From Bacteroidaceae bacterium (lineage in GTDB: Bacteria; Bacteroidota; Bacteroidia; Bacteroidales; Bacteroidaceae): a stretch of 42,541 nucleotides of DNA. Position 1 is the stretch's first letter. Each line of letters begins with the position of its first letter. A model generated the notes under the pieces. That model did no database searches. It saw only the letters and a list, made by a program, of their open reading frames with translations, and was not told the DNA's origin. Below are positions 21,324 through 31,512 of this stretch, piece by piece. Made by a program: the position numbers and the translations under genes. The DNA lies in the NCBI GenBank assembly GCA_017467885.1, contig JAFUKC010000023.1:1-42541 (forward strand). The letters are read 5' to 3'.

Positions 21324-21397
<74 letters not shown>

Positions 21398-21400
21398 CAA

Positions 21401-21672: not shown

Positions 21673-24420
21673 CTATACAAATAACTGTCCGAAGTCATCA
21701 GGACTAACTTCAATACGTTCAGTTGGGAATATAGTAGAGGTTGCCAACGTGGTTTTTCGACTTAAAAGCTCATCTAATGTTTCATCAAATGACTTAAATT
21801 TTGGACTCGTAGCCATAGGATAATAAACAAAAACATCTTTTGTTTGTCCTATTCGATAAGCTCTATCTGTAGCCTGATTCTCTTTAGCTGGATTCCAATG
21901 CCTACTAAAGTGTATAACGTGATTTGCTGCTGTAACATTTAATCCCATTCCAGCAGCTATAGGAGACATTATAATAATATTAAATCCCGGTGTTGACTGA
22001 AAATCATCAATGGCTGTTTGCCTAGATTGCTTATTCGTCCTTCTACCTGTGCTAATAGTCGGCGTGTCTCCGTTAATAATTTTAGGGATAATACCATATC
22101 TTTCTAAACAAATGCGCTGAAGCATTTTCTGTGATTCTTTTCTTTCAGCAAATAAAATCACTTTCTCATTCAAGCTGTGAATATTATCTAGAAAAAGAAT
22201 AGTTGCTTGTAAACGAGCAGAAGTTCCTACCAACTCACTCGGTTCACGACTTTGCAATGTCATATCATACAAGAAAGGGTGTTCCGAAATCTCCTTAATA
22301 CGATTGATTGTCAAAAGCATATTAGGTTGTTCGCCACTAACATAATTATTTACCTCTTTTATATAAGTAGCCTCCTGAAGTGCAGGCATATATACAGGTC
22401 GTTTCAGTTCCTCTTTCTTGGGAAGATCTTTTGCTGCATCTTTTTTAAGGCGACGCATCAAATACACACCTAATTTTTGATGAATCTCATTTCCTAATGC
22501 AACTATATCAGTATCTTCATTTTTAAGTGGATTTTGGTACTTGGCAGCAAAAGATTTAGCATTACCCAAAAGTCCTGGAACGCAAAAATCCATTATACAC
22601 CATAAGTCCAGCAGTGTGTTTTCAACAGGTGTACCGGTCATCGCAATCTTAAAGTTGCTTTTAAGTGCCTTTGCTGCATTAGTAACAAGAGTGCCCGGCG
22701 ATTTTATCTTCTGCGCTTCATCAAGAGCTACTATATCAAATTCAACAGCACAGAAGTTCAACTGCGATGTGCGTAAAGATTCATAGTTCGTCAATATGAT
22801 GTCCATTTTCTGCATCATATCAACAACAGCCTTGTTAAATTGTCTAGGAATATCTCTTGATGACAAACGACAGATGCTCAATCTCGGTGCCATAAAGAAA
22901 CGTTCATATTCGTTTTCCCAATTTTCTAGCAAAGAAATAGGTGCTACTATAAGATATGGCTTATGATTAGGAAATTGTCGAGAATGCCAATCAATAAAAT
23001 ATAAGATTTGCAAAGTCTTTCCTAAACCCATATCATCAGCCATTAAGCACCCACTGGCCTTATTGTTGTACAAATATTGTAACCAAGCAACACCTTCTTC
23101 TTGGTGGTTTTTTAAAGAAAAGCAGGTTTGTAGGAATGGGTTCTTATACAAGGTATATTTATCAGTATTCTCCAAATTATGAAAATCCGATTTGAAAGCA
23201 AGTTCTTCTGCATTATCTTTTATTATAAGAACTTTCCTTTCATTAGGAATGCTTTCAACATCAATTGGCGATTGAGGCTGCTTTAACTGTTCAAGAGCCT
23301 TTTGTGCTAAAAATTTTGCGTCTTCAACTGCAATTTCTGTATATTCATATTTTACGGTAGGAGAGTTGCTTTGTGAAGCCTCTTTAATCGCTTCTTCCAA
23401 TTTATCAAGTTCTTCTTTACTTGATATGTATATTTTAGTCGTGCCACTTTGTGGTGATTCAATTGCCGCGCCAAAAACCCAACAAGATTTATACGGAGAA
23501 ATAAAAGGATAGAATTTCGGTTTATATACTCCTATATCAATAACACGATCACTATATAGTTCTGATAAATCAAATTGTTCGGGGTCAAAGAATTCAGTAG
23601 GGTTTTGAATAATATCCCTTATTTCCTGTAAAGATTTACGTCGCCCACCTGTACGTTTGATGTAATCCAAACTTTCTTTTTGTTCTGGAGTTATGACAAC
23701 ACGCACACGCTCACCATTCTCTTTGGCAACAGGATAAACTCCTTGTACCTTCCGCATCTTATCAAAGACACTCTTAAATTTTTCACTATCAGTAATCCCA
23801 ACAGAAGGGTCTATCGTATAACCTAAGTCATCTTGACCTACTTCTATTTTTATTTTTTCAGGAACGTGTACATTCTCATTTTCTAAATAACTATCAAGTT
23901 CACAATTAGCTTCATAAGCAAGTTTTTTTATCCTAGCAAAACAACGTAAATTATAGTCTGTTGATTTCTCACTCTCTTGTGTGGAATTGAACTTGTCTAT
24001 CTCTCTAATCAAAAGGTACTGATTGACACTTAAAAGAAATTTGTTATTATTGCAAGAAACAATGTTCTCAATACGTTCACATTGCAAAATATCCCCATCC
24101 GGGACATAAGATAAAAAATCTAATTTATATCTAAAATCTACACTATTAAGCATTCCGTTGCTTCGTAACCTCAATGCTTTGTCGTAAGGTTCAGGAACAC
24201 CCAAGAGAGCCATATCATCAGTATCAAGCTGATAAATATATTCAAAAGGAATGGTACACTTGCTTTCTGAAAAATCAGCAAAACCATTATCTGCCATAGC
24301 CTGCAATGGCAGATAATAGATGCAATCATCGGTATTGCTCCATTCATTTACAGGTATATCAACACCATTAAGATTAACGGTGAACACAAGACCCGCACTA
24401 TTTATATCCAAGTTCAACAT
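21673..24420 (-). CDS. zorD: Zorya type I protein ZorD, SNF2-type helicase
   Basis: This 915-residue protein has a C-terminal SNF2/Swi2 ATPase: Walker A DDMGLGKTLQ near residue 462, motif Ia VAPISLLENWENEYERF, the Walker B box ALDEAQKIKSP near 565 (DEAQ rather than DEAH), motif III MTGTPVENTLLDLW, and motifs V-VI (AAGMGLNVTAANHVIHF, ATDRAYRIGQTKDV) near 850. The N-terminal 430 residues are a divergent accessory region without a motif I recognise. In Zorya type I, ZorD is the cytoplasmic DNA-processing effector. It is fourth in the order zorA-zorB-zorC-zorD, 4 bp after zorC. It is shorter than the roughly 1,080 residues I recall for the E. coli protein. Alone it could be any SNF2 helicase; the neighbours decide the call. 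Confidence 0.9.
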   Translation of the reverse strand: MLNLDINSAGLVFTVNLNGVDIPVNEWSNTDDCIYYLPLQAMADNGFADFSESKCTIPFEYIYQLDTDDMALLGVPEPYDKALRLRSNGMLNSVDFRYKLDFLSYVPDGDILQCERIENIVSCNNNKFLLSVNQYLLIREIDKFNSTQESEKSTDYNLRCFARIKKLAYEANCELDSYLENENVHVPEKIKIEVGQDDLGYTIDPSVGITDSEKFKSVFDKMRKVQGVYPVAKENGERVRVVITPEQKESLDYIKRTGGRRKSLQEIRDIIQNPTEFFDPEQFDLSELYSDRVIDIGVYKPKFYPFISPYKSCWVFGAAIESPQSGTTKIYISSKEELDKLEEAIKEASQSNSPTVKYEYTEIAVEDAKFLAQKALEQLKQPQSPIDVESIPNERKVLIIKDNAEELAFKSDFHNLENTDKYTLYKNPFLQTCFSLKNHQEEGVAWLQYLYNNKASGCLMADDMGLGKTLQILYFIDWHSRQFPNHKPYLIVAPISLLENWENEYERFFMAPRLSICRLSSRDIPRQFNKAVVDMMQKMDIILTNYESLRTSQLNFCAVEFDIVALDEAQKIKSPGTLVTNAAKALKSNFKIAMTGTPVENTLLDLWCIMDFCVPGLLGNAKSFAAKYQNPLKNEDTDIVALGNEIHQKLGVYLMRRLKKDAAKDLPKKEELKRPVYMPALQEATYIKEVNNYVSGEQPNMLLTINRIKEISEHPFLYDMTLQSREPSELVGTSARLQATILFLDNIHSLNEKVILFAERKESQKMLQRICLERYGIIPKIINGDTPTISTGRRTNKQSRQTAIDDFQSTPGFNIIIMSPIAAGMGLNVTAANHVIHFSRHWNPAKENQATDRAYRIGQTKDVFVYYPMATSPKFKSFDETLDELLSRKTTLATSTIFPTERIEVSPDDFGQLFV

Positions 24421-24424
24421 TTGA

Positions 24425-26308
24425 TTATAATTTTATTTCCTTGAGATCACTTTGATTAAGTTTATTCTTAAACTTGATTACACCATCTTCTAATTTTATG
24501 TAACCAATAACGAATAATGTTCCTAAATAAAAATGTACAATTTCGCACCACCCTGTATCCATAGGGGACTTAATTCTAATATCGCCATTAGCAGACTCGC
24601 CTTTTTGAAGAGTTCTGAAGCGTGCAAAAGCCGAAGTGCCTATCTTGTTTAGATAAACCCCTTTTGGATTAGCAACAATCCTATACCTACTATAAAAGAA
24701 TGGTTTACTAGATATAGAACAAAGAACATTCTTTTCATACGTTATTTCATCATCACAAACAATATCGGGTTCAGGTTCTTTCCTTTCAACTTTTATTATA
24801 GTTGTGTTAGGATTGTCATCAGAATATGACTCATATATATCGAAGTCTTTTGACAAAGGTTTTTCCTTAAACAATTCATCATCCTTTGTGTCAAAAAATG
24901 ATAAGGAGGTGTTGTAAGCAGATAGAACTTTCCGCTCCATCCATAAAGTTAAACGGTCTTGCCACTCACCTCTATGGTGAAAACGACCTTCTTCATTATG
25001 ATAAGTATGATAATAGTCTTGCTCAACCAGTAAATTCATAGAAGGAATTTTTAAGTCGTTTGTAGAATTTATAGTTCTAACAGATGTTACAAGACCTACT
25101 TGCTTATGCCCTTGGTTATACACATACAAAGCTCCGGTATCAGAAAACTCTATAAGCATTTTGTTTTTTATAAACAGAACAAGAGCTGATGTCTGCGAAG
25201 TATAAGAATTAGTTTCTTTGAAATGTCTATGGAATGTGCTGCCAATTCTAGAGTCGCTTTGAAGCATTCTTTTTGTAGCAGTAGAACCAATAATTTTAAA
25301 TCCACTTAGGTATTTGACATACTTAAGCCAAAAATTTTTTCTTTCTTTGCTTTGAACGCAAACCTCAAAGAATACTTCTATGATTTGCTGTGCGAACCAC
25401 ATGTAAACAAGTCTCATAGCCTTCTTCAACCTTGCTGCATCTTCGTTAGATGCACCGGCAAACGGTGCCCAAGTCGAAGCAAGGGTTACGTCACCAAGAG
25501 TTCTGTTGATAAATCTACATAAAATGGAACGCTTTATTTCATCACCTCTCCTGTTTTCTCTCTCTACCAAATAAGCACAGACAAGTTTTTTAGTTCTGTC
25601 AATATCGTGTAAACTAAAAATTTCGCTTATTGTGTCGAGCTTGGTAATATTATTCTTTTCAATATAATTGATAATCACATCAGAATAATACGATTGTTTA
25701 AAAGCAGAGCTTTTATAACCTATAATAGATGGTGCATTAAATAAGTCTATATTTTTTGCAGTTAATAGAGCTGCCAATCTTAAAGGACCATTCTTATCAA
25801 AAAGGTTCAAATGGTTCTTCAAAAGAATGTAGCGTTTATTGTTGTCCTCATATTCTTTAAGCTTTTTTATTATTAGCTGGCAAGTTGCCTCTCTAAATTC
25901 GGGCTCGATATAATTCCAAGAATTTAAGACATAGAATATAAGTCCATTAAAGAACAGACTTTTCCACCTCCTGTCAAGTAATGAAAGAGCGAAATAATAA
26001 TCCTTCGGATCGTCGCGCAACTTCATTAAGTAATAAGAGACTATTCTCAATTCTCGAGTACTCCAAGACTCAAAAGAACTTTCACCTTGATTAGAGCACC
26101 TTTTAACTTTCAGAACAATTTCATCTATAGACCGTTGAGACACATTTATACCCCTATCGGAATTCATACGTTCCTCTATCTGCTTCAATAACCGCATATT
26201 TTTATTAAAAACCCGATTAAGCTGGATTTCATCAATACGCGATGCCTGAAGCGGAAAATCTTTAATTAAATCTGACTTTATATTCAGAAGGCTAAAAACG
26301 TCGCTCAC
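24425..26308 (-). CDS. zorC: Zorya protein ZorC, EH-signature domain
   Basis: This 627-residue, largely helical protein lies between zorB and zorD, as ZorC does in Zorya type I. The EH-signature domain is named for a conserved Glu and His. Here MLIEFSDTGALYVY supplies Glu387, and RFHHRGEWQDRLTLW supplies His444/His445; the preceding region RMLQSDSRIGSTFHRHF also fits. The domain assignment is by pattern, not alignment. ZorC is reported to act with ZorD on invading DNA in the cytoplasm. The start codon is a GTG that overlaps the zorB stop (GTGA), suggesting translational coupling. The C-terminal 120 residues are beta-rich and acidic at their start. Confidence 0.85.
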   Translation of the reverse strand: MSDVFSLLNIKSDLIKDFPLQASRIDEIQLNRVFNKNMRLLKQIEERMNSDRGINVSQRSIDEIVLKVKRCSNQGESSFESWSTRELRIVSYYLMKLRDDPKDYYFALSLLDRRWKSLFFNGLIFYVLNSWNYIEPEFREATCQLIIKKLKEYEDNNKRYILLKNHLNLFDKNGPLRLAALLTAKNIDLFNAPSIIGYKSSAFKQSYYSDVIINYIEKNNITKLDTISEIFSLHDIDRTKKLVCAYLVERENRRGDEIKRSILCRFINRTLGDVTLASTWAPFAGASNEDAARLKKAMRLVYMWFAQQIIEVFFEVCVQSKERKNFWLKYVKYLSGFKIIGSTATKRMLQSDSRIGSTFHRHFKETNSYTSQTSALVLFIKNKMLIEFSDTGALYVYNQGHKQVGLVTSVRTINSTNDLKIPSMNLLVEQDYYHTYHNEEGRFHHRGEWQDRLTLWMERKVLSAYNTSLSFFDTKDDELFKEKPLSKDFDIYESYSDDNPNTTIIKVERKEPEPDIVCDDEITYEKNVLCSISSKPFFYSRYRIVANPKGVYLNKIGTSAFARFRTLQKGESANGDIRIKSPMDTGWCEIVHFYLGTLFVIGYIKLEDGVIKFKNKLNQSDLKEIKL

Positions 26309-26994
26309 TGCTTATTAAATCTTTTGTTAGCGATTTCTTCTAATTGTTTCTCGGCATTTGTTCTCACCCTAAATTCAACCCTTCTTGAAAGCTCAAAATC
26401 TTCTGCTCCATTTACTAATATCGGCTGACTAGAAGATAGTCCATTGGCAGTAATCAATCCTTTGAGCCAAGCAGACTGTTCTTCAGTCATCAAGTTAAAA
26501 CAATACTGTAGAACAGTTCTTGTTCTGTTTTGCGAAAGAGCCATATTGTAGAAATACTCTCCTTTGCTATCTGTATGTCCTTCAATCCTTATTTCTACAA
26601 TCCTGTCCTTGTATTTTTCTCTGCTTAAAACAGCAATATAGCGAGGAAAAAAATCATCAAGAATTTCTTTGAATTTCGGCTTTAAGTCGGCTTTGTCATA
26701 ATCAAAGAGCATAGATGGCTCTTGGAATCTTACGCAAAGCGTAGAGTCAATAGAAGCTCGCCAAACTTTCAAATCCTCCTTAAATTCTTCTTGAAGATCA
26801 ATATATAGTTGAGTCTTAATTTGGTCATACTGCCTAACAAGTTCCTCATCCTGCTCCGCTTTTTCTTGAACCTGTAACAAAGCACCCATAAGAAGCAAGA
26901 TAAAGATAAACAGCAAACCTGCCATAAGGTCTCCTGTGGACTGTGAGAAAACATTTTCCTCATCTGATTTGTATGTAACCTTTTTCTTTTTCAT
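26305..26994 (-). CDS. zorB: Zorya protein ZorB, MotB/OmpA-like stator subunit
   Basis: This 229-residue protein has one N-terminal transmembrane helix (about residues 19-41). The helix begins STGDLMAGLLFIFILLL, and Asp22 is the expected ion-carrying residue of MotB/ExbD-like stator proteins. A short linker and a C-terminal OmpA-type peptidoglycan-binding domain follow: ALFDYDKADLKP-like region, EIRIEGHTDSKG, ALSQNRTRTVLQY and the final SRRVEFRV. This is the ZorB design, anchoring the ZorA ring to the cell wall. It starts on the stop codon of zorA (TAATG, 1-nt overlap) and overlaps zorC by 4 bp. No flagellar genes are near, which argues against a motility stator. Confidence 0.93.
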   Translation of the reverse strand: MKKKKVTYKSDEENVFSQSTGDLMAGLLFIFILLLMGALLQVQEKAEQDEELVRQYDQIKTQLYIDLQEEFKEDLKVWRASIDSTLCVRFQEPSMLFDYDKADLKPKFKEILDDFFPRYIAVLSREKYKDRIVEIRIEGHTDSKGEYFYNMALSQNRTRTVLQYCFNLMTEEQSAWLKGLITANGLSSSQPILVNGAEDFELSRRVEFRVRTNAEKQLEEIANKRFNKQ

Positions 26995-29021
26995 TAGTGC
27001 CTACGTGAATTAAGAGATTCTGCCAACATTTCAACGATTTCATTTTGTTGCTGTATGGTACTAGAGAGAGCATCGGTGGTTTGAGTCAAACTAGAACTAT
27101 ATTGGTCAAGGTACTTGTGCGTGGTTGCTTGTACTGTTCGGCTATACTGTGTAAGACCTTCTTGTAACTGAGCAAATATGCTTCCAAGTCCTTGCTTGAT
27201 AGTCTCGAATTTAGCAGCATATTCACTTGACATTTCACCAGAGCTTTCAAGTAATTCTTTGACAGCGTCAATGCCCCTCTGATTATTGCGTTGAATCTCT
27301 TCCATTTTGACAGAATATTCGTTTTGGCTCTTACTGAATAGTTGGGTAGCAAACTTCATATCTCCTGTAATTGTTTGCAAATGCGCGGTACTTCCTGCTA
27401 TTTGACCTTGCGCCTGTTGGAACAGGCTCATAGTGCCTAAAATATTTTCATTAAGCTTTCCAAGACGTATAATACCTTCATTGAATGTTTCAAGCAATTT
27501 CCGGGTTTCAGTAGTTGTATCTTCCTGTAAAGCTATCAAGTCTGCCTGTTTGTTACTGATATCTGTAGTTATGCTAGCAACAGACTCTTGAACCGAACTT
27601 GAAAGCGAAGAAATAGTGCTATTAAGGAAAGCACCCATTTTTTCAGAAGCATCAGCGAGTTTGCTTATCATCTGATTGCTTTGCTCCTGCGAAGTAGTAG
27701 AAATTCCGTCTATTACATTATGCACTTCATTAATCGCCTCACTAATTGCTCCTGTCGCAAAAGATATTTGCTCCTGCATCTGTTGCATAGCTGTAGAATT
27801 CGCATTTGCAGAAGTAGTAGAAATGTCAGCAACCGCGGATTTAACCTCATTAATTGTTGTTTGAAGTTGAATAGATATTCTATCCATATTTTGTGGGAAT
27901 TCCGCCATCGCCTGTGTTGCAGTACCTAACTGCATCGCCAGACCTTCAAGTTCATTAACCGCAGGTTTAGATATACTAGATTTAAATTCATCAACAACTG
28001 TAGCCATACTATCTTTAAGCTCGCTAACAACACCCTGAATCATCTCATTCGCAGGAGCAGTGACTTTTTCAGAGACCATATCAATATGTTGAATAATTGC
28101 CTTTGTTGTAGCATCAACATTTTCCATTAGAGGCAAAATCTTCTGTTGCATTTGACGAGATAATGATTCATCAAACCCATTATTGAGTTCTATAGCCAAA
28201 TCGGTAGAGAAAGATTTCAAGGCCTTTGTTTGCTCTGTGCTTTCAGCAAGTATCTCACGAATAGCATTTCCAATGGATACGACCTGACTATCCGAATTAG
28301 AATAAACTAATTTATCATTTATACTCTTGGCGTTTTCCGCTGAACTAGATATAATCGCACTCGACTGATTTATAATAAGAGTTTGAATCTTATCATATAG
28401 TGTAACTAGCAATTGTTCTTGATTTTTACTAGCAAGAGCTACATCATCAATATAATATTGTCTATCTAATTTCTCTGTCAATCTAGATAATTGTTTGGAC
28501 AACTTATTTCTAGATGACTTATCAATAAAAATAAAGATAATAGAAAGAGACATACCTAACAATGATGTAGCGAACGCAGTAGCCATACCACCTAAAAGCA
28601 TTTCTATGCTTTCTTGTATTTTGGTAGTGTCAGAACTGTCAAAACCTTGAATACCTAATGTCAATCCCAAGAAAGTACCAAGAAGACCCAAACCAACCAA
28701 TGTTCCTGATGCTGTATCAATCATCCTAATATTAAGATTGGCTGTAGCACATACATTCTCTGACGAAAAGTATTCAGAAGAAGGGATATTAGTTTTATCC
28801 CCATCTTCAGACTGAACAATAAATGAAGACACGTAGCTGTCCTTAATATTAGACAACCTTGTTTTTCCTATAGCAGTTAAAATATCATCTGCATCGGCAA
28901 CCAACCTTATCTGCTTGGTTATTCTTGGGAGTTTCAACACTTCCCAAAGAAAATATATAAAAACCAAAGAGATAAAAGCCAATGACAATGTTGTCGTATT
29001 TTCTCGAAACATTTCTAGCAT
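26994..29021 (-). CDS. zorA: Zorya protein ZorA, MotA/ExbB-like motor with long tail
   Basis: This 675-residue protein has a TM helix at about residues 11-29, then the MotA/TolQ/ExbB core with two more TM helices, GLLGTFLGLTLGI (about 107-120) and GGMATAFATSLLGMSLSIIFIF (about 144-166). About 500 residues of predominantly helical, Ser/Thr/Gln-rich tail follow. The tail makes it far longer than flagellar MotA (about 290) and is the hallmark of ZorA, whose tail projects into the cytoplasm and is needed for defence. It is the first gene of the operon. A TATATTTG box lies about 36 bp upstream and the XRE regulator gene is divergent. Confidence 0.93.
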   Translation of the reverse strand: MLEMFRENTTTLSLAFISLVFIYFLWEVLKLPRITKQIRLVADADDILTAIGKTRLSNIKDSYVSSFIVQSEDGDKTNIPSSEYFSSENVCATANLNIRMIDTASGTLVGLGLLGTFLGLTLGIQGFDSSDTTKIQESIEMLLGGMATAFATSLLGMSLSIIFIFIDKSSRNKLSKQLSRLTEKLDRQYYIDDVALASKNQEQLLVTLYDKIQTLIINQSSAIISSSAENAKSINDKLVYSNSDSQVVSIGNAIREILAESTEQTKALKSFSTDLAIELNNGFDESLSRQMQQKILPLMENVDATTKAIIQHIDMVSEKVTAPANEMIQGVVSELKDSMATVVDEFKSSISKPAVNELEGLAMQLGTATQAMAEFPQNMDRISIQLQTTINEVKSAVADISTTSANANSTAMQQMQEQISFATGAISEAINEVHNVIDGISTTSQEQSNQMISKLADASEKMGAFLNSTISSLSSSVQESVASITTDISNKQADLIALQEDTTTETRKLLETFNEGIIRLGKLNENILGTMSLFQQAQGQIAGSTAHLQTITGDMKFATQLFSKSQNEYSVKMEEIQRNNQRGIDAVKELLESSGEMSSEYAAKFETIKQGLGSIFAQLQEGLTQYSRTVQATTHKYLDQYSSSLTQTTDALSSTIQQQNEIVEMLAESLNSRRH

Positions 29022-29233: not shown

Positions 29234-30286
29234 ATGAAAGAGATATTTCCAATAAGACTAAAACAGGCACGTATAATGCAAGGGCTATCAATGGACTCTC
29301 TTTGTGAAAAGGCAAATTTTGCACTCAGTAAACAAGCCATTTCAAAATATGAGACTGGAAAAATGATGCCCGATAGCAAGTCTTTGATTATTTTGTCAAA
29401 TGCGTTAGGAGTAAGCATCGATTACTTCTTTCGCCCTATTGCTATATCTATTGATAAAGTTGAATTTCGCAAGAGGTCAAAATTAGGTGTAAAACAGGTA
29501 GATGCTATCAAAGAGTTAGTTAGAGATAAGTTAGAACGTTATTTCGAAATAGAATCCATAATTGATATTCAAACTGATTTTAAGTCGGTATATGACAATG
29601 TTTTGATTCAGGGAGAAGATGATATTTTTCCCGTTGTTGCACGAATCAAAGAAGAATGGAAACTTGGCGAGGATGGCATCAATAATCTTATTGAGATATT
29701 AGAGGAAAATAAAATAAAAGTTATAGAGATAGATGCCCCTAACAGTTTTGACGGATTAAGCGGATATGCTAATGGCAAAAATCCTGTAATTGTTCTCAAC
29801 AAGAATTTCGATAGTGAACGCAAACGTTTCACTGCATTGCATGAGTTGGGGCATTTGCTTCTCAACTTTGATAATTCAATAGATGAGAAACAAGTTGAAA
29901 ATTTTTGCAATTTATTTGCAAATGAAATGCTTATCTCCAAAAGCGTATTCATACAAAAAATAGGTATGAACCGCAAAGATATTTCATTGCAGGAGTTGCA
30001 GGATATTCAGTTTCAATTTGGAATTTCCATTGATGCTTTGATGTACAAAGCAAAAGAATTAAATATTATAACCGATGCCCGATACAGGACTTTCTGCATC
30101 AAAAAGAACCAAACTAAAAGATTTAAAGAAGAGGTAGAAAGAAGTCGTTATAAACAAGAAGAATCCAATCGCTTTGTACGTTTGGTATATCGTGCTTTGG
30201 CAAGCGAAATTATTTCTATATCAAAGGCAGGCTCGCTGCTAAACATTCCTGTAAATGCAATACGAAATCAACTAAACTTGGTATAG
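29234..30286 (+). CDS. XRE-family regulator fused to ImmA/IrrE metallopeptidase
   Basis: This 350-residue protein has an N-terminal helix-turn-helix (about residues 5-60: RLKQARIMQGLSMDSLCEKA, then SKQAISKYETGKMMPDSKSL). The middle domain contains the zinc-peptidase motif HELGH at residues 203-207 (ALHELGHLLLNF) and a downstream ANEMLI with the likely third ligand Glu. This fusion is typical of ImmA/IrrE (COG2856) proteins, which cleave repressors or act as antitoxins. The PIN-domain gene follows after 1 bp, so both are made from one transcript. The gene is divergent from zorA and could regulate both promoters. Substrate and signal are not visible. Confidence 0.93.
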   Translation: MKEIFPIRLKQARIMQGLSMDSLCEKANFALSKQAISKYETGKMMPDSKSLIILSNALGVSIDYFFRPIAISIDKVEFRKRSKLGVKQVDAIKELVRDKLERYFEIESIIDIQTDFKSVYDNVLIQGEDDIFPVVARIKEEWKLGEDGINNLIEILEENKIKVIEIDAPNSFDGLSGYANGKNPVIVLNKNFDSERKRFTALHELGHLLLNFDNSIDEKQVENFCNLFANEMLISKSVFIQKIGMNRKDISLQELQDIQFQFGISIDALMYKAKELNIITDARYRTFCIKKNQTKRFKEEVERSRYKQEESNRFVRLVYRALASEIISISKAGSLLNIPVNAIRNQLNLV

Positions 30287-30287
30287 A

Positions 30288-30794
30288 ATGGAAATTGTAG
30301 TAAACGACACAAATATATTCATAGACCTATACTCAATCGGACTATTGGAACAATTCTTTGAATTGCCAATAACCGTGCACACAGTTGATTTTGTTATCAA
30401 TGAACTGAAAGAACCAGAACAACTCAAAGCTGTAAACGAGTTTATAAAGAACGGCAAATTGAAAGTTCAAAATTTTGACACAAAAGATTTGATTGACATT
30501 ATCAATTTACAGAGCAGAGCCGGCGGTAACGTGTCTATTACAGACTGTGCTGTGTGGCATTATGCAAAGATTAATAACTACACATTGTTAACAGGCGACG
30601 GGCAGCTACGAAACAAGGCGATAGAATCAAGATTAACGGTAAAAGGCATTATTTATGTATTCGATCAATTAATCGAATGTGGCGTCATTTTTCCTCGAAT
30701 GGCCATAAGCAAGATACAAGATTTAATGAACATCAATACCAGATTGCCCAAAAAAATAATTCAAGAACGCATAGAGAAGTGGAGCAATACATAA
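30288..30794 (+). CDS. PIN-domain protein, putative toxin
   Basis: This 168-residue protein has the PIN nuclease pattern of four acidic residues: Asp7 (VVNDTNIFIDL), Glu39 (VINELKEPEQ), Asp86 (SITDCAVWHYA) and Asp104 (LLTGDGQLR). PIN proteins cut RNA and are the toxins of many type II toxin-antitoxin modules. Its partner here is the ImmA/IrrE-fused XRE protein that ends one base upstream. PIN-like families have been described next to COG2856 proteins, and this gene may belong to that group (DUF4411-like, not verified). It is slightly longer than the typical PIN toxin of about 135 residues. Confidence 0.85.
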   Translation: MEIVVNDTNIFIDLYSIGLLEQFFELPITVHTVDFVINELKEPEQLKAVNEFIKNGKLKVQNFDTKDLIDIINLQSRAGGNVSITDCAVWHYAKINNYTLLTGDGQLRNKAIESRLTVKGIIYVFDQLIECGVIFPRMAISKIQDLMNINTRLPKKIIQERIEKWSNT

Positions 30795-31272: not shown

Positions 31273-31512
31273 AGCATGTCTCGCAAAGGCAACTGCTTAG
31301 ATAATGCTATGATGGAAAACTTATTTGGACTTATGAAGCCTGAATTATTAAATTTACAGGAGTGGGATGATATTGAACAGTTCAAGAAAGAACTTATTAG
31401 ATACATACACTACTACAATAATGATAGAATCAAATTGAGGCTAAATGGAAAAAGCCCGGTACAATACCGAGCTTTATTCCAATCTAAGTCAGCCTCTTTA
31501 TTTATACGATGA
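31261..31512 (+). pseudogene. IS3-family transposase C-terminal remnant
   Basis: The last roughly 80 residues of an IS3-type DDE transposase are present: [20 protein letters not shown] (with the catalytic Glu), then [22 protein letters not shown]. The frame continues a few codons upstream of the ATG at 31276, as expected if the 5' part was lost at about 31260. No upstream transposase frame or terminal inverted repeats are visible. The stop codon lies only 6 bp from the end of the phosphohexomutase gene. It marks the right border of the accessory island. Confidence 0.85.

What the first reader, a model, noticed from the sequence alone, without database searches (positions are those of the whole stretch)
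21673..29021. Complete Zorya type I anti-phage system in a Bacteroidales chromosome
Four overlapping or adjacent minus-strand genes match the Zorya type I order: zorA (MotA-like core plus a tail of about 500 residues), zorB (single TM with Asp22 and an OmpA domain), zorC (EH-signature pattern with Glu387 and His444/445) and zorD (SNF2 helicase). The motor motifs, SNF2 motifs and overlaps are read directly. The system name follows from established knowledge of Zorya (stator-like sensor ZorAB, DNA-directed effectors ZorC and ZorD). Activity in this host is inference.
Basis: partly seen in the sequence, partly recalled or inferred. Interest (0 to 1): 0.8.

Follow-up and report, generated by a model that had tools for sequence, protein, structure and literature searches.

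The report
Motor-driven antiphage system, Bacteroidota lineage
A Bacteroidota bacterium carries a complete four-gene phage-defence machine (Zorya type I) of a little-described lineage, and relatives found while checking it include natural hybrids suggesting that the machine's long internal tail, not its membrane motor, goes with the choice of weapon.

Summary
It lies in a low-G+C island (35.6% against 43-44%) beside tRNA-Arg, with a RosmerTA-like pair; 1 of 44 genus genomes searched, the window's own, has this zorD.
Three additions. (1) Its ZorB is nearest to type II ZorB (49% to E. coli ZorB2), although ZorA and the effectors side with type I. (2) In the window and 11 sister loci ZorD lacks the C-terminal Mrr domain that many relatives keep (12 of 12), and ZorC has an added C-terminal part in 11 of 12. 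(3) Three relatives (L069, L180, L206; three genera, two families) look like natural chimeras: type II ZorB and type II-like ZorA membrane core, joined just after the last membrane helix to a type I-lineage tail, then zorC and zorD. In all 80 loci scored for this, tail type and effector agreed; the core disagreed only in these three. 'The ZorA tail specifies the effector' becomes testable. Activity was not tested.

The parts
26994..29021 (-). zorA, 675 aa: MotA/ExbB-like motor subunit with long cytoplasmic tail
   Evidence: MotA_ExbB 32.7 bits, PADLOC ZorA1 85 bits, PDB 8qyh 6e-12; groups with zorCD-linked ZorAs
28935..28991 (-). ZorA TM1 (residues 11-29), followed by a 76-aa loop to TM2 (99 aa in Klebsiella type I, 11-28 aa in the five type II ZorAs L062, L064, L065, L077, L081)
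   Evidence: hydropathy scan
28524..28706 (-). ZorA TM2 (106-124) to TM3 (148-166), motor core
   Evidence: zorCD-lineage core HMM 135.6 bits against 75.0 for type II, held out
26997..28454 (-). ZorA cytoplasmic tail (about residues 190-675; start approximate)
   Evidence: zorCD-lineage tail HMM 507 bits against 21 for type II and 7 for canonical type I, held out
26305..26994 (-). zorB, 229 aa: single TM with Asp22 and OmpA-type peptidoglycan-binding domain (residues 96-171); type II-like sequence
   Evidence: OmpA 46.8 bits; NCBIfam ZorB2 175 vs ZorB1 52 bits, both under cut-off; PDB 8vvi 2e-39 vs 8qyd 3e-9; tree
26929..26931 (-). codon of ZorB Asp22, the ion-carrying aspartate by alignment
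   Evidence: aligns with E. coli ZorB2 Asp24 and Klebsiella ZorB1 Asp26
24425..26308 (-). zorC, 627 aa: EH_Signature protein
   Evidence: PF15611 63.1 bits; Glu387, His445 invariant in 26 aligned ZorCs
24428..24925 (-). ZorC C-terminal extension (residues 462-627): linker plus a part conserved in the sister loci; 2-6 aa at this place in L096, L097, L099, L101-L103, L136, L068, L069
   Evidence: tail lengths; alignment; no Pfam match to that part in the window or L085, L089
21673..24420 (-). zorD, 915 aa: SNF2-type translocase/helicase; ends right after the helicase, without Mrr domain
   Evidence: PADLOC ZorD1 1109 bits; PDB 8qy7 2e-134 (that this entry is E. coli ZorD is recalled); Pfam; Mrr_cat in relatives L096, L069, L119, L084
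23014..23028 (-). ZorD Walker A GLGKT (residues 465-469)
22711..22722 (-). ZorD Walker B DEAQ (residues 567-570)
29234..30286 (+). divergent XRE-HTH plus ImmA/IrrE peptidase protein, RmrA of RosmerTA type (neighbour, not part of Zorya)
   Evidence: PADLOC RmrA 150 bits; Peptidase_M78 and HTH_3
30288..30794 (+). PIN-like protein, candidate toxin partner of RmrA
   Evidence: PDC-S70 28.5 bits; PIN 20.8 bits, below the gathering score of 23.6
31276..31512 (+). 78-aa integrase-core remnant (IS3-type by eye) at the island's right edge
   Evidence: rve_2 7e-17
21324..21398 (+). tRNA-Arg(tct) at the island's left edge; miaA, crp and tRNA-Arg lie together in many genus relatives fetched, and what follows the tRNA differs between them

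Best explanation
This is a complete, intact Zorya system with type I gene content, of a lineage found in Bacteroidota and a few other phyla, probably acquired horizontally by this genome. By homology, five ZorA and two ZorB form an ion-driven inner-membrane motor; ZorB's domain binds peptidoglycan when a phage perturbs the envelope; ion flow through Asp22 turns or bends the ZorA tail; the tail recruits and switches on ZorC and ZorD at the injection site; ZorC binds DNA and ZorD uses ATP to move along and destroy the incoming DNA. Shown here: the genes and key residues, tail length, absence of a Mrr domain, membership of a conserved lineage. Inferred: assembly, sensing, recruitment, activity. 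Since ZorD has no Mrr domain (nor does the Klebsiella-type ZorD, which ends at the same place), any cleavage must come from the SNF2 part or from ZorC. The chimeric relatives indicate that the tail, rather than the motor core, is inherited with the effectors.
For: Family and PDB matches; conserved residues; window and L085-L095 keep A-B-C-D order (12 of 12). ZorB, ZorA and ZorD trees keep the window with these loci. Low-G+C island; zorD in 1 of 44 genus genomes at E 1e-60. Mechanism from Mariano 2025 (PMC11890865: section 6 and passages read) and a 2026 review (PMC12904381, passages). Tail-effector linkage: 58 of 58 cross-validated ZorA tails, 12 of 12 viral-contig loci with both tail and effector, 7 of 7 further type II loci and the 3 chimeras agree with their effector; the core disagrees in the three chimeras only.
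Against: No activity data. The best PADLOC match of ZorC is weak (34 bits). Of four E. coli type II residues needed for peptidoglycan binding, two are kept (H140, R204) and two differ (S to D142, R to E219). No protein reaches an NCBIfam cut-off. The genome is a 63%-complete assembly. The deep forks of the ZorA tree are weak (26/28), and one zorE-linked ZorA (L079, long branch) falls among the zorCD-linked ones there. In the core-only tree, joining the L069 and L180 cores to the type I cores is not rejected (AU p = 0.31, 100 columns).
Confidence: 0.88

Rival explanations
1. The window's operon is itself a mosaic: a type II stator (at least ZorB) that swapped its ZorE for type I ZorCD.
For: ZorB 49% identical to E. 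coli ZorB2, and none of the 23 plasmid records it hits is the Klebsiella type I ZorB; best PDB match is the type II entry 8vvi.
Against: In the ZorB tree, zorCD-linked and zorE-linked ZorBs form one split (90/81, not starred) except the chimera L069, so no swap is needed for the window; ZorA core, loop and tail are on the zorCD side.
Confidence: 0.15
2. ZorD here blocks or strips phage DNA without cutting, and the new ZorC C-terminal part supplies the missing effector step.
For: C-terminal domain absent in window and L085-L095 (12 of 12) but present in L096, L098, L100; ZorC extension of 134-252 aa in 11 of these 12.
Against: No strict trade: L097, L099, L115 have neither, L084 and L167 have both; Klebsiella ZorD also ends without that domain; E. 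coli ZorD is reported to have nuclease activity (recalled: Hu 2025, not held).
Confidence: 0.15
3. Decayed or non-functional copy.
For: Island beside an integrase-core remnant; found in 1 of 44 genus genomes.
Against: All four frames open, closely spaced and with conserved motifs.
Confidence: 0.05
4. A non-defence stator (MotAB/ExbBD-like) with unrelated neighbours.
For: Pfam names are generic.
Against: All four proteins match Zorya models and occur together in the window and L085-L095, 12 of 12.
Confidence: 0.01

Closest known systems
Zorya type I of Klebsiella / E. coli (ZorABCD)
   Same: Four genes in the same order, EH_Signature Glu/His, SNF2 ZorD, ZorA with a long TM1-TM2 loop and a tail of about 500 residues
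   Different: ZorB distant (no Klebsiella record among the hits); ZorD lacks the 119-aa insert after residue 285; ZorC C-terminal part differs; tail scores 7 bits against the canonical tail HMM
Zorya type II (ZorABE)
   Same: ZorB 47-49% identical to several type II ZorBs, including E. coli
   Different: No ZorE; ZorA has the long TM1-TM2 loop and a tail scoring 21 bits against the type II tail HMM
PADLOC models PDLC00631 (ZorD1), PDLC00609 (ZorB1)
   Same: Score 1109 and 237 bits, so related sequences were probably already in the 2023 library
   Different: The match stops 146 positions before the end of the ZorD model
Chimeric loci L069, L180, L206
   Same: ZorC, ZorD and ZorA tail nearest to the window's wider lineage
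   Different: ZorB and ZorA core type II-like; gene order B-A-C-D

Membership tests
Zorya type I | ZorA: MotA/ExbB core with long cytoplasmic tail | tested here: met
Zorya type I | ZorB: one TM with the ion-carrying Asp plus peptidoglycan-binding domain | tested here: met
   Asp22; OmpA 46.8 bits
Zorya type I | ZorC: EH_Signature protein with conserved Glu and His | tested here: met
   PF15611 63.1 bits; Glu387, His445
Zorya type I | ZorD: SNF2-type helicase | tested here: met
Zorya type I | ZorD with Mrr-like nuclease domain (reported for ZorD in prior work, per PMC11890865) | tested here: not met
   no Mrr_cat; the Klebsiella ZorD L078 also ends at this place, so not treated as defining
Zorya type I | gene order A-B-C-D in one operon | tested here: met
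   (order and spacing; co-transcription not tested)
Zorya type I | ZorA5B2 assembly and recruitment of ZorCD | not testable with these tools
   needs structure of the complex or biochemistry
Zorya type I | protection against phages | not testable with these tools
   needs cloning and plaque assays
Zorya type II | ZorE HNH protein as effector | tested here: not met
   none of the seven proteins tested around the island matches ZorE
RosmerTA (neighbour) | HTH-ImmA/IrrE antitoxin RmrA | tested here: met
   PADLOC 150 bits
RosmerTA (neighbour) | toxin partner RmrT | tested here: inconclusive
   the PIN-like partner matches no RmrT model; RmrT toxins are diverse (PMC10440598, passages)

The most novel reading that the evidence does not exclude
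Zorya is built from two exchangeable halves, split just behind the last ZorA membrane helix: a sensor-motor half (ZorB plus ZorA core) and an effector half (ZorA tail plus ZorCD or ZorE). The ZorA tail alone decides which effector is called. In a B-A-effector gene order one crossover inside zorA swaps tail and effectors together, and nature has done this in the lineage of L069, L180 and L206, joining a type II motor to a window-type tail and ZorCD.
Probability: 0.55. Interest if true: 0.72.

Novelty: new variant of a known kind. Interest (0 to 1): 0.5.

Why it matters
How a membrane motor tells its soluble effectors when and where to act is the open step in Zorya. The window's lineage supplies a divergent type I operon with a short ZorD and a new ZorC part. 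Its chimeric relatives give a ready-made test: if the tail carries effector choice, tails can be exchanged between type I and type II motors and should redirect recruitment. Five searches of an open-licence paper library listed no paper whose title or shown abstract start reports such natural chimeras; I read passages of four papers on Zorya. The main structural paper (Hu 2025, Nature) is not held, so this is no proof of absence.

Tried and rejected
Non-defence stator: counted out. Window as type II or as a forced mosaic: not supported by the ZorB split and the ZorA placement. A strict trade of ZorD's C-terminal domain against the ZorC extension: rejected, both-present and both-absent cases exist. 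Whether L101-L103 replace ZorD by another gene: no ZorD-sized frame seen within the fetched stretch, left open. The 'effector-less' AB loci: the small gene after zorB matches ZorE models without the HNH part in the three tested by PADLOC (L132, L134, L163) and nothing in Pfam in the six tested (L120, L132, L134, L139, L157, L163), so I do not call it a new type. Empty-site comparison: pgm is not near the tRNA in the relatives fetched, so the exact insertion could not be defined; no direct repeat of the tRNA end was seen. The ZorC search in viral contigs found nothing. Promoter-like sites exceeded shuffles (55 against 36.5), but that the sigma-70 consensus does not fit Bacteroidota is my recall, so not used.

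Rows dropped before counts: L138, a copy of L063; 22 of 99 ZorAs lacking the motif used to cut the core; canonical type I rows and L072/L074/L168 kept out of the two-class scoring; 16 of 101 ZorB rows as long-branched or near-copies; 2 of 14 viral loci without a usable tail-effector pair (L185, L188). L075, with no effector on its short contig, was counted with the zorCD rows, and zorC-only loci were counted with zorCD. Near-identical rows remain in the cross-validation folds, so 58 of 58 is flattered. L206 was placed by HMM, BLAST and 81% ZorB identity to L069, not by a tree.

Full report
Observation. The window holds four complete minus-strand genes exactly where stated, overlapping by 1 and 4 nt or 4 nt apart. 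They match MotA_ExbB, OmpA, EH_Signature and SNF2/Helicase_C above Pfam's gathering scores, and PADLOC's ZorA, ZorB, ZorC and ZorD. The best PDB sequence matches are Zorya entries for ZorA (all five hits) and ZorB (the first three of 27), and 8qy7 for ZorD, listed as a DEAD/DEAH box helicase and recalled to be E. coli ZorD; ZorC has no significant PDB match. ZorB Asp22 aligns with the conducting Asp, ZorC Glu387 and His445 with Klebsiella Glu400 and His443, and the SNF2 motifs GLGKT, DEAQ and QATDRAYRIGQ are intact. That Glu400/His443 are functional residues is recalled from the Zorya structure paper, which is not held.

Setting. The genome is an unnamed 1.44-Mb assembly, 63% complete. The operon sits between tRNA-Arg and an integrase-core remnant, in a stretch of 35.6% G+C against 43.8% and 43.1% on either side. 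miaA, crp and tRNA-Arg lie together in many of the genus relatives fetched, what follows the tRNA differs between them, and pgm lies elsewhere. At E 1e-60, zorD occurs in 1 of 44 genus genomes, the window's own; 11 of the 44 are at least 90% complete with at most 5% contamination. Divergent from zorA is an HTH-ImmA/IrrE protein (PADLOC RmrA, 150 bits) followed by a PIN-like gene, a RosmerTA-like pair (PMC10440598 passages); neither was found in the fetched stretches of 26 relatives. I read this as a small acquired defence island.

Lineage. The 13 nearest (L085-L097, ZorB 61-79% identical) are titled as Bacteroidales taxa, several from ruminant guts, and all 13 carry A-B-C-D, with split frames in L091. 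More distant loci with a similar ZorB and zorC-zorD occur in Fibrobacter, Poribacteria, Synergistaceae, Gaoshiqia and Anaerophaga. One viral contig carries a window-type zorA-zorB-zorC up to its end (L181). PADLOC's 2023 models already score highly, so the lineage was probably sampled before, but NCBIfam cut-offs are not reached. [quoted passage not shown]

ZorB is the odd part. It is 49% identical to E. coli ZorB2, and the 23 plasmid records it hits include no Klebsiella record, whereas ZorD hits Klebsiella ZorD at 34%. In the tree of 100 ZorBs, four canonical type I rows are cut off with 100/100, and the window's clade sits next to the zorE-linked ZorBs. I first took this for an effector swap. 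The tree does not require it: apart from L069, zorCD-linked and zorE-linked ZorBs form one split (90/81, short of a star). ZorA also sides with the zorCD group, though deep forks there are weak and the zorE-linked L079 falls among them; it has the long TM1-TM2 loop of type I (76 aa; 99 in Klebsiella; 11-28 in five type II ZorAs). So the window is type I by content, with a ZorB close to type II.

Effectors. ZorD ends after the helicase. In the window and L085-L095 (12 of 12) at most 11 residues follow, while 14 of the other ZorDs carry 153-173 more, identified as Mrr_cat in the four tested (L096, L069, L119, L084). ZorC has 166 residues beyond the EH_Signature region; 10 of the 11 sisters have 134-252, and L094 has 23. 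The end of this extension is conserved among these sisters, has no Pfam match in the three tested (window, L085, L089), and looks unlike the C-terminus of Klebsiella, Polymorphobacter or Nitrosospira ZorC (by eye). Loss and gain are not strictly coupled: L097, L099 and L115 have neither, L084 and L167 both.

Chimeras. While reading neighbourhoods, L069 (genome G126) stood out: order zorB-zorA-zorC-zorD, ZorB inside type II. Holding all zorCD-linked ZorBs together is rejected (AU p = 8.7e-11; p = 1.1e-4 on a quick tree with 16 long-branched or near-copy rows left out and L180 added). HMMs built without L069 score its ZorA core as type II (103 against 65 bits) and its tail as zorCD type (287 against 18). 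L180 (G533; another genus of that family) and L206 (G962; another family) show the same order and split (L180: core 92 against 54, tail 269 against 22; L206: core 86 against 56, tail 313 against 15). In L069 and L180 the change lies at about residues 100-120, just behind the last membrane helix. By BLAST the three ZorBs and ZorA cores have zorE-linked best hits, the tails have zorCD-lineage best hits, and the ZorCs and ZorDs are nearest to the wider lineage of the window, not to the canonical rows; in the ZorD tree L069 falls in that lineage (95/92). Controls: 5-fold cross-validation classified 58 of 58 cores and 58 of 58 tails correctly (27 zorCD, 31 zorE); of 14 viral-contig loci, the 12 with both a ZorA tail and an effector agreed in core and tail; of 8 further loci, 7 were plain type II in core and tail and the eighth was L206. 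Against it: with 100 core columns an AU test does not reject putting the L069 and L180 cores beside the type I cores (p = 0.31), so the origin of the core is less sure than that of ZorB. In the tree of the first 330 ZorA residues, which mixes core and tail, L069 falls on the zorCD side, and its full-length ZorA hits zorCD-linked ZorAs best.

Mechanism. From Mariano 2025 (PMC11890865; section 6 and passages) and a 2026 review (PMC12904381; passages): ZorA5B2 is an ion-driven motor; ZorB must bind peptidoglycan; the tail and ion flow are needed; ZorAB recruits the effectors. I infer the same for the window. The chimeras add that the tail is inherited with the effectors while ZorB, and probably the core, is not, which fits the tail as the adaptor that selects the effector. 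If the recipient had B-A order, one crossover within zorA would exchange tail and effectors together. B-A order also occurs in one viral-contig locus with a type II-like core (L185), though its zorA is short and no effector was seen.

Verdict. Complete Zorya type I, correctly recognised, of a Bacteroidota variant lineage; activity untested. The more interesting result is outside the window: natural type II motor/type I tail hybrids.

Noticed in passing
L069:1389-8326 (-), L180:5635-12325 (-), L206:2164-9092 (-): Natural chimeras, order zorB-zorA-zorC-zorD: type II-like ZorB and ZorA core, type I-lineage ZorA tail, ZorC and ZorD.
   Followed up: yes
L120:8117-8632, L132:8196-8696, L134:8151-8723, L163:8157-8633: Type II-like loci whose gene after zorB is only 158-190 aa and, in the three tested, matches ZorE models without the HNH part; they belong to an 11-row ZorB clade in which my scan found no zorC, zorD or zorE.
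   Followed up: partly
L101:8217-9575, L102:8217-9572, L103:8184-9545, L117:8257-9717: zorA-zorB-zorC with no zorD found within the fetched stretch: a possible ZorC-only Zorya.
   Followed up: partly
window 29234-30794: RosmerTA-like pair (HTH-ImmA/IrrE protein plus PIN-like protein) divergent from zorA, sharing a 212-bp intergenic region.
   Followed up: partly
L185:6974-8427: Viral-contig locus with zorB before zorA and a type II-like core, zorA short; no effector seen.
   Followed up: no
L181:5007-9645: A contig of the viral collection carries a window-type zorA-zorB-zorC (ZorB 68% identical), running into the contig end.
   Followed up: no
L091:5631-8193; L094:8198-9855: Sister operons with interrupted or short frames (split zorA and zorB in L091; short zorC followed by a gap in L094).
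   Followed up: no
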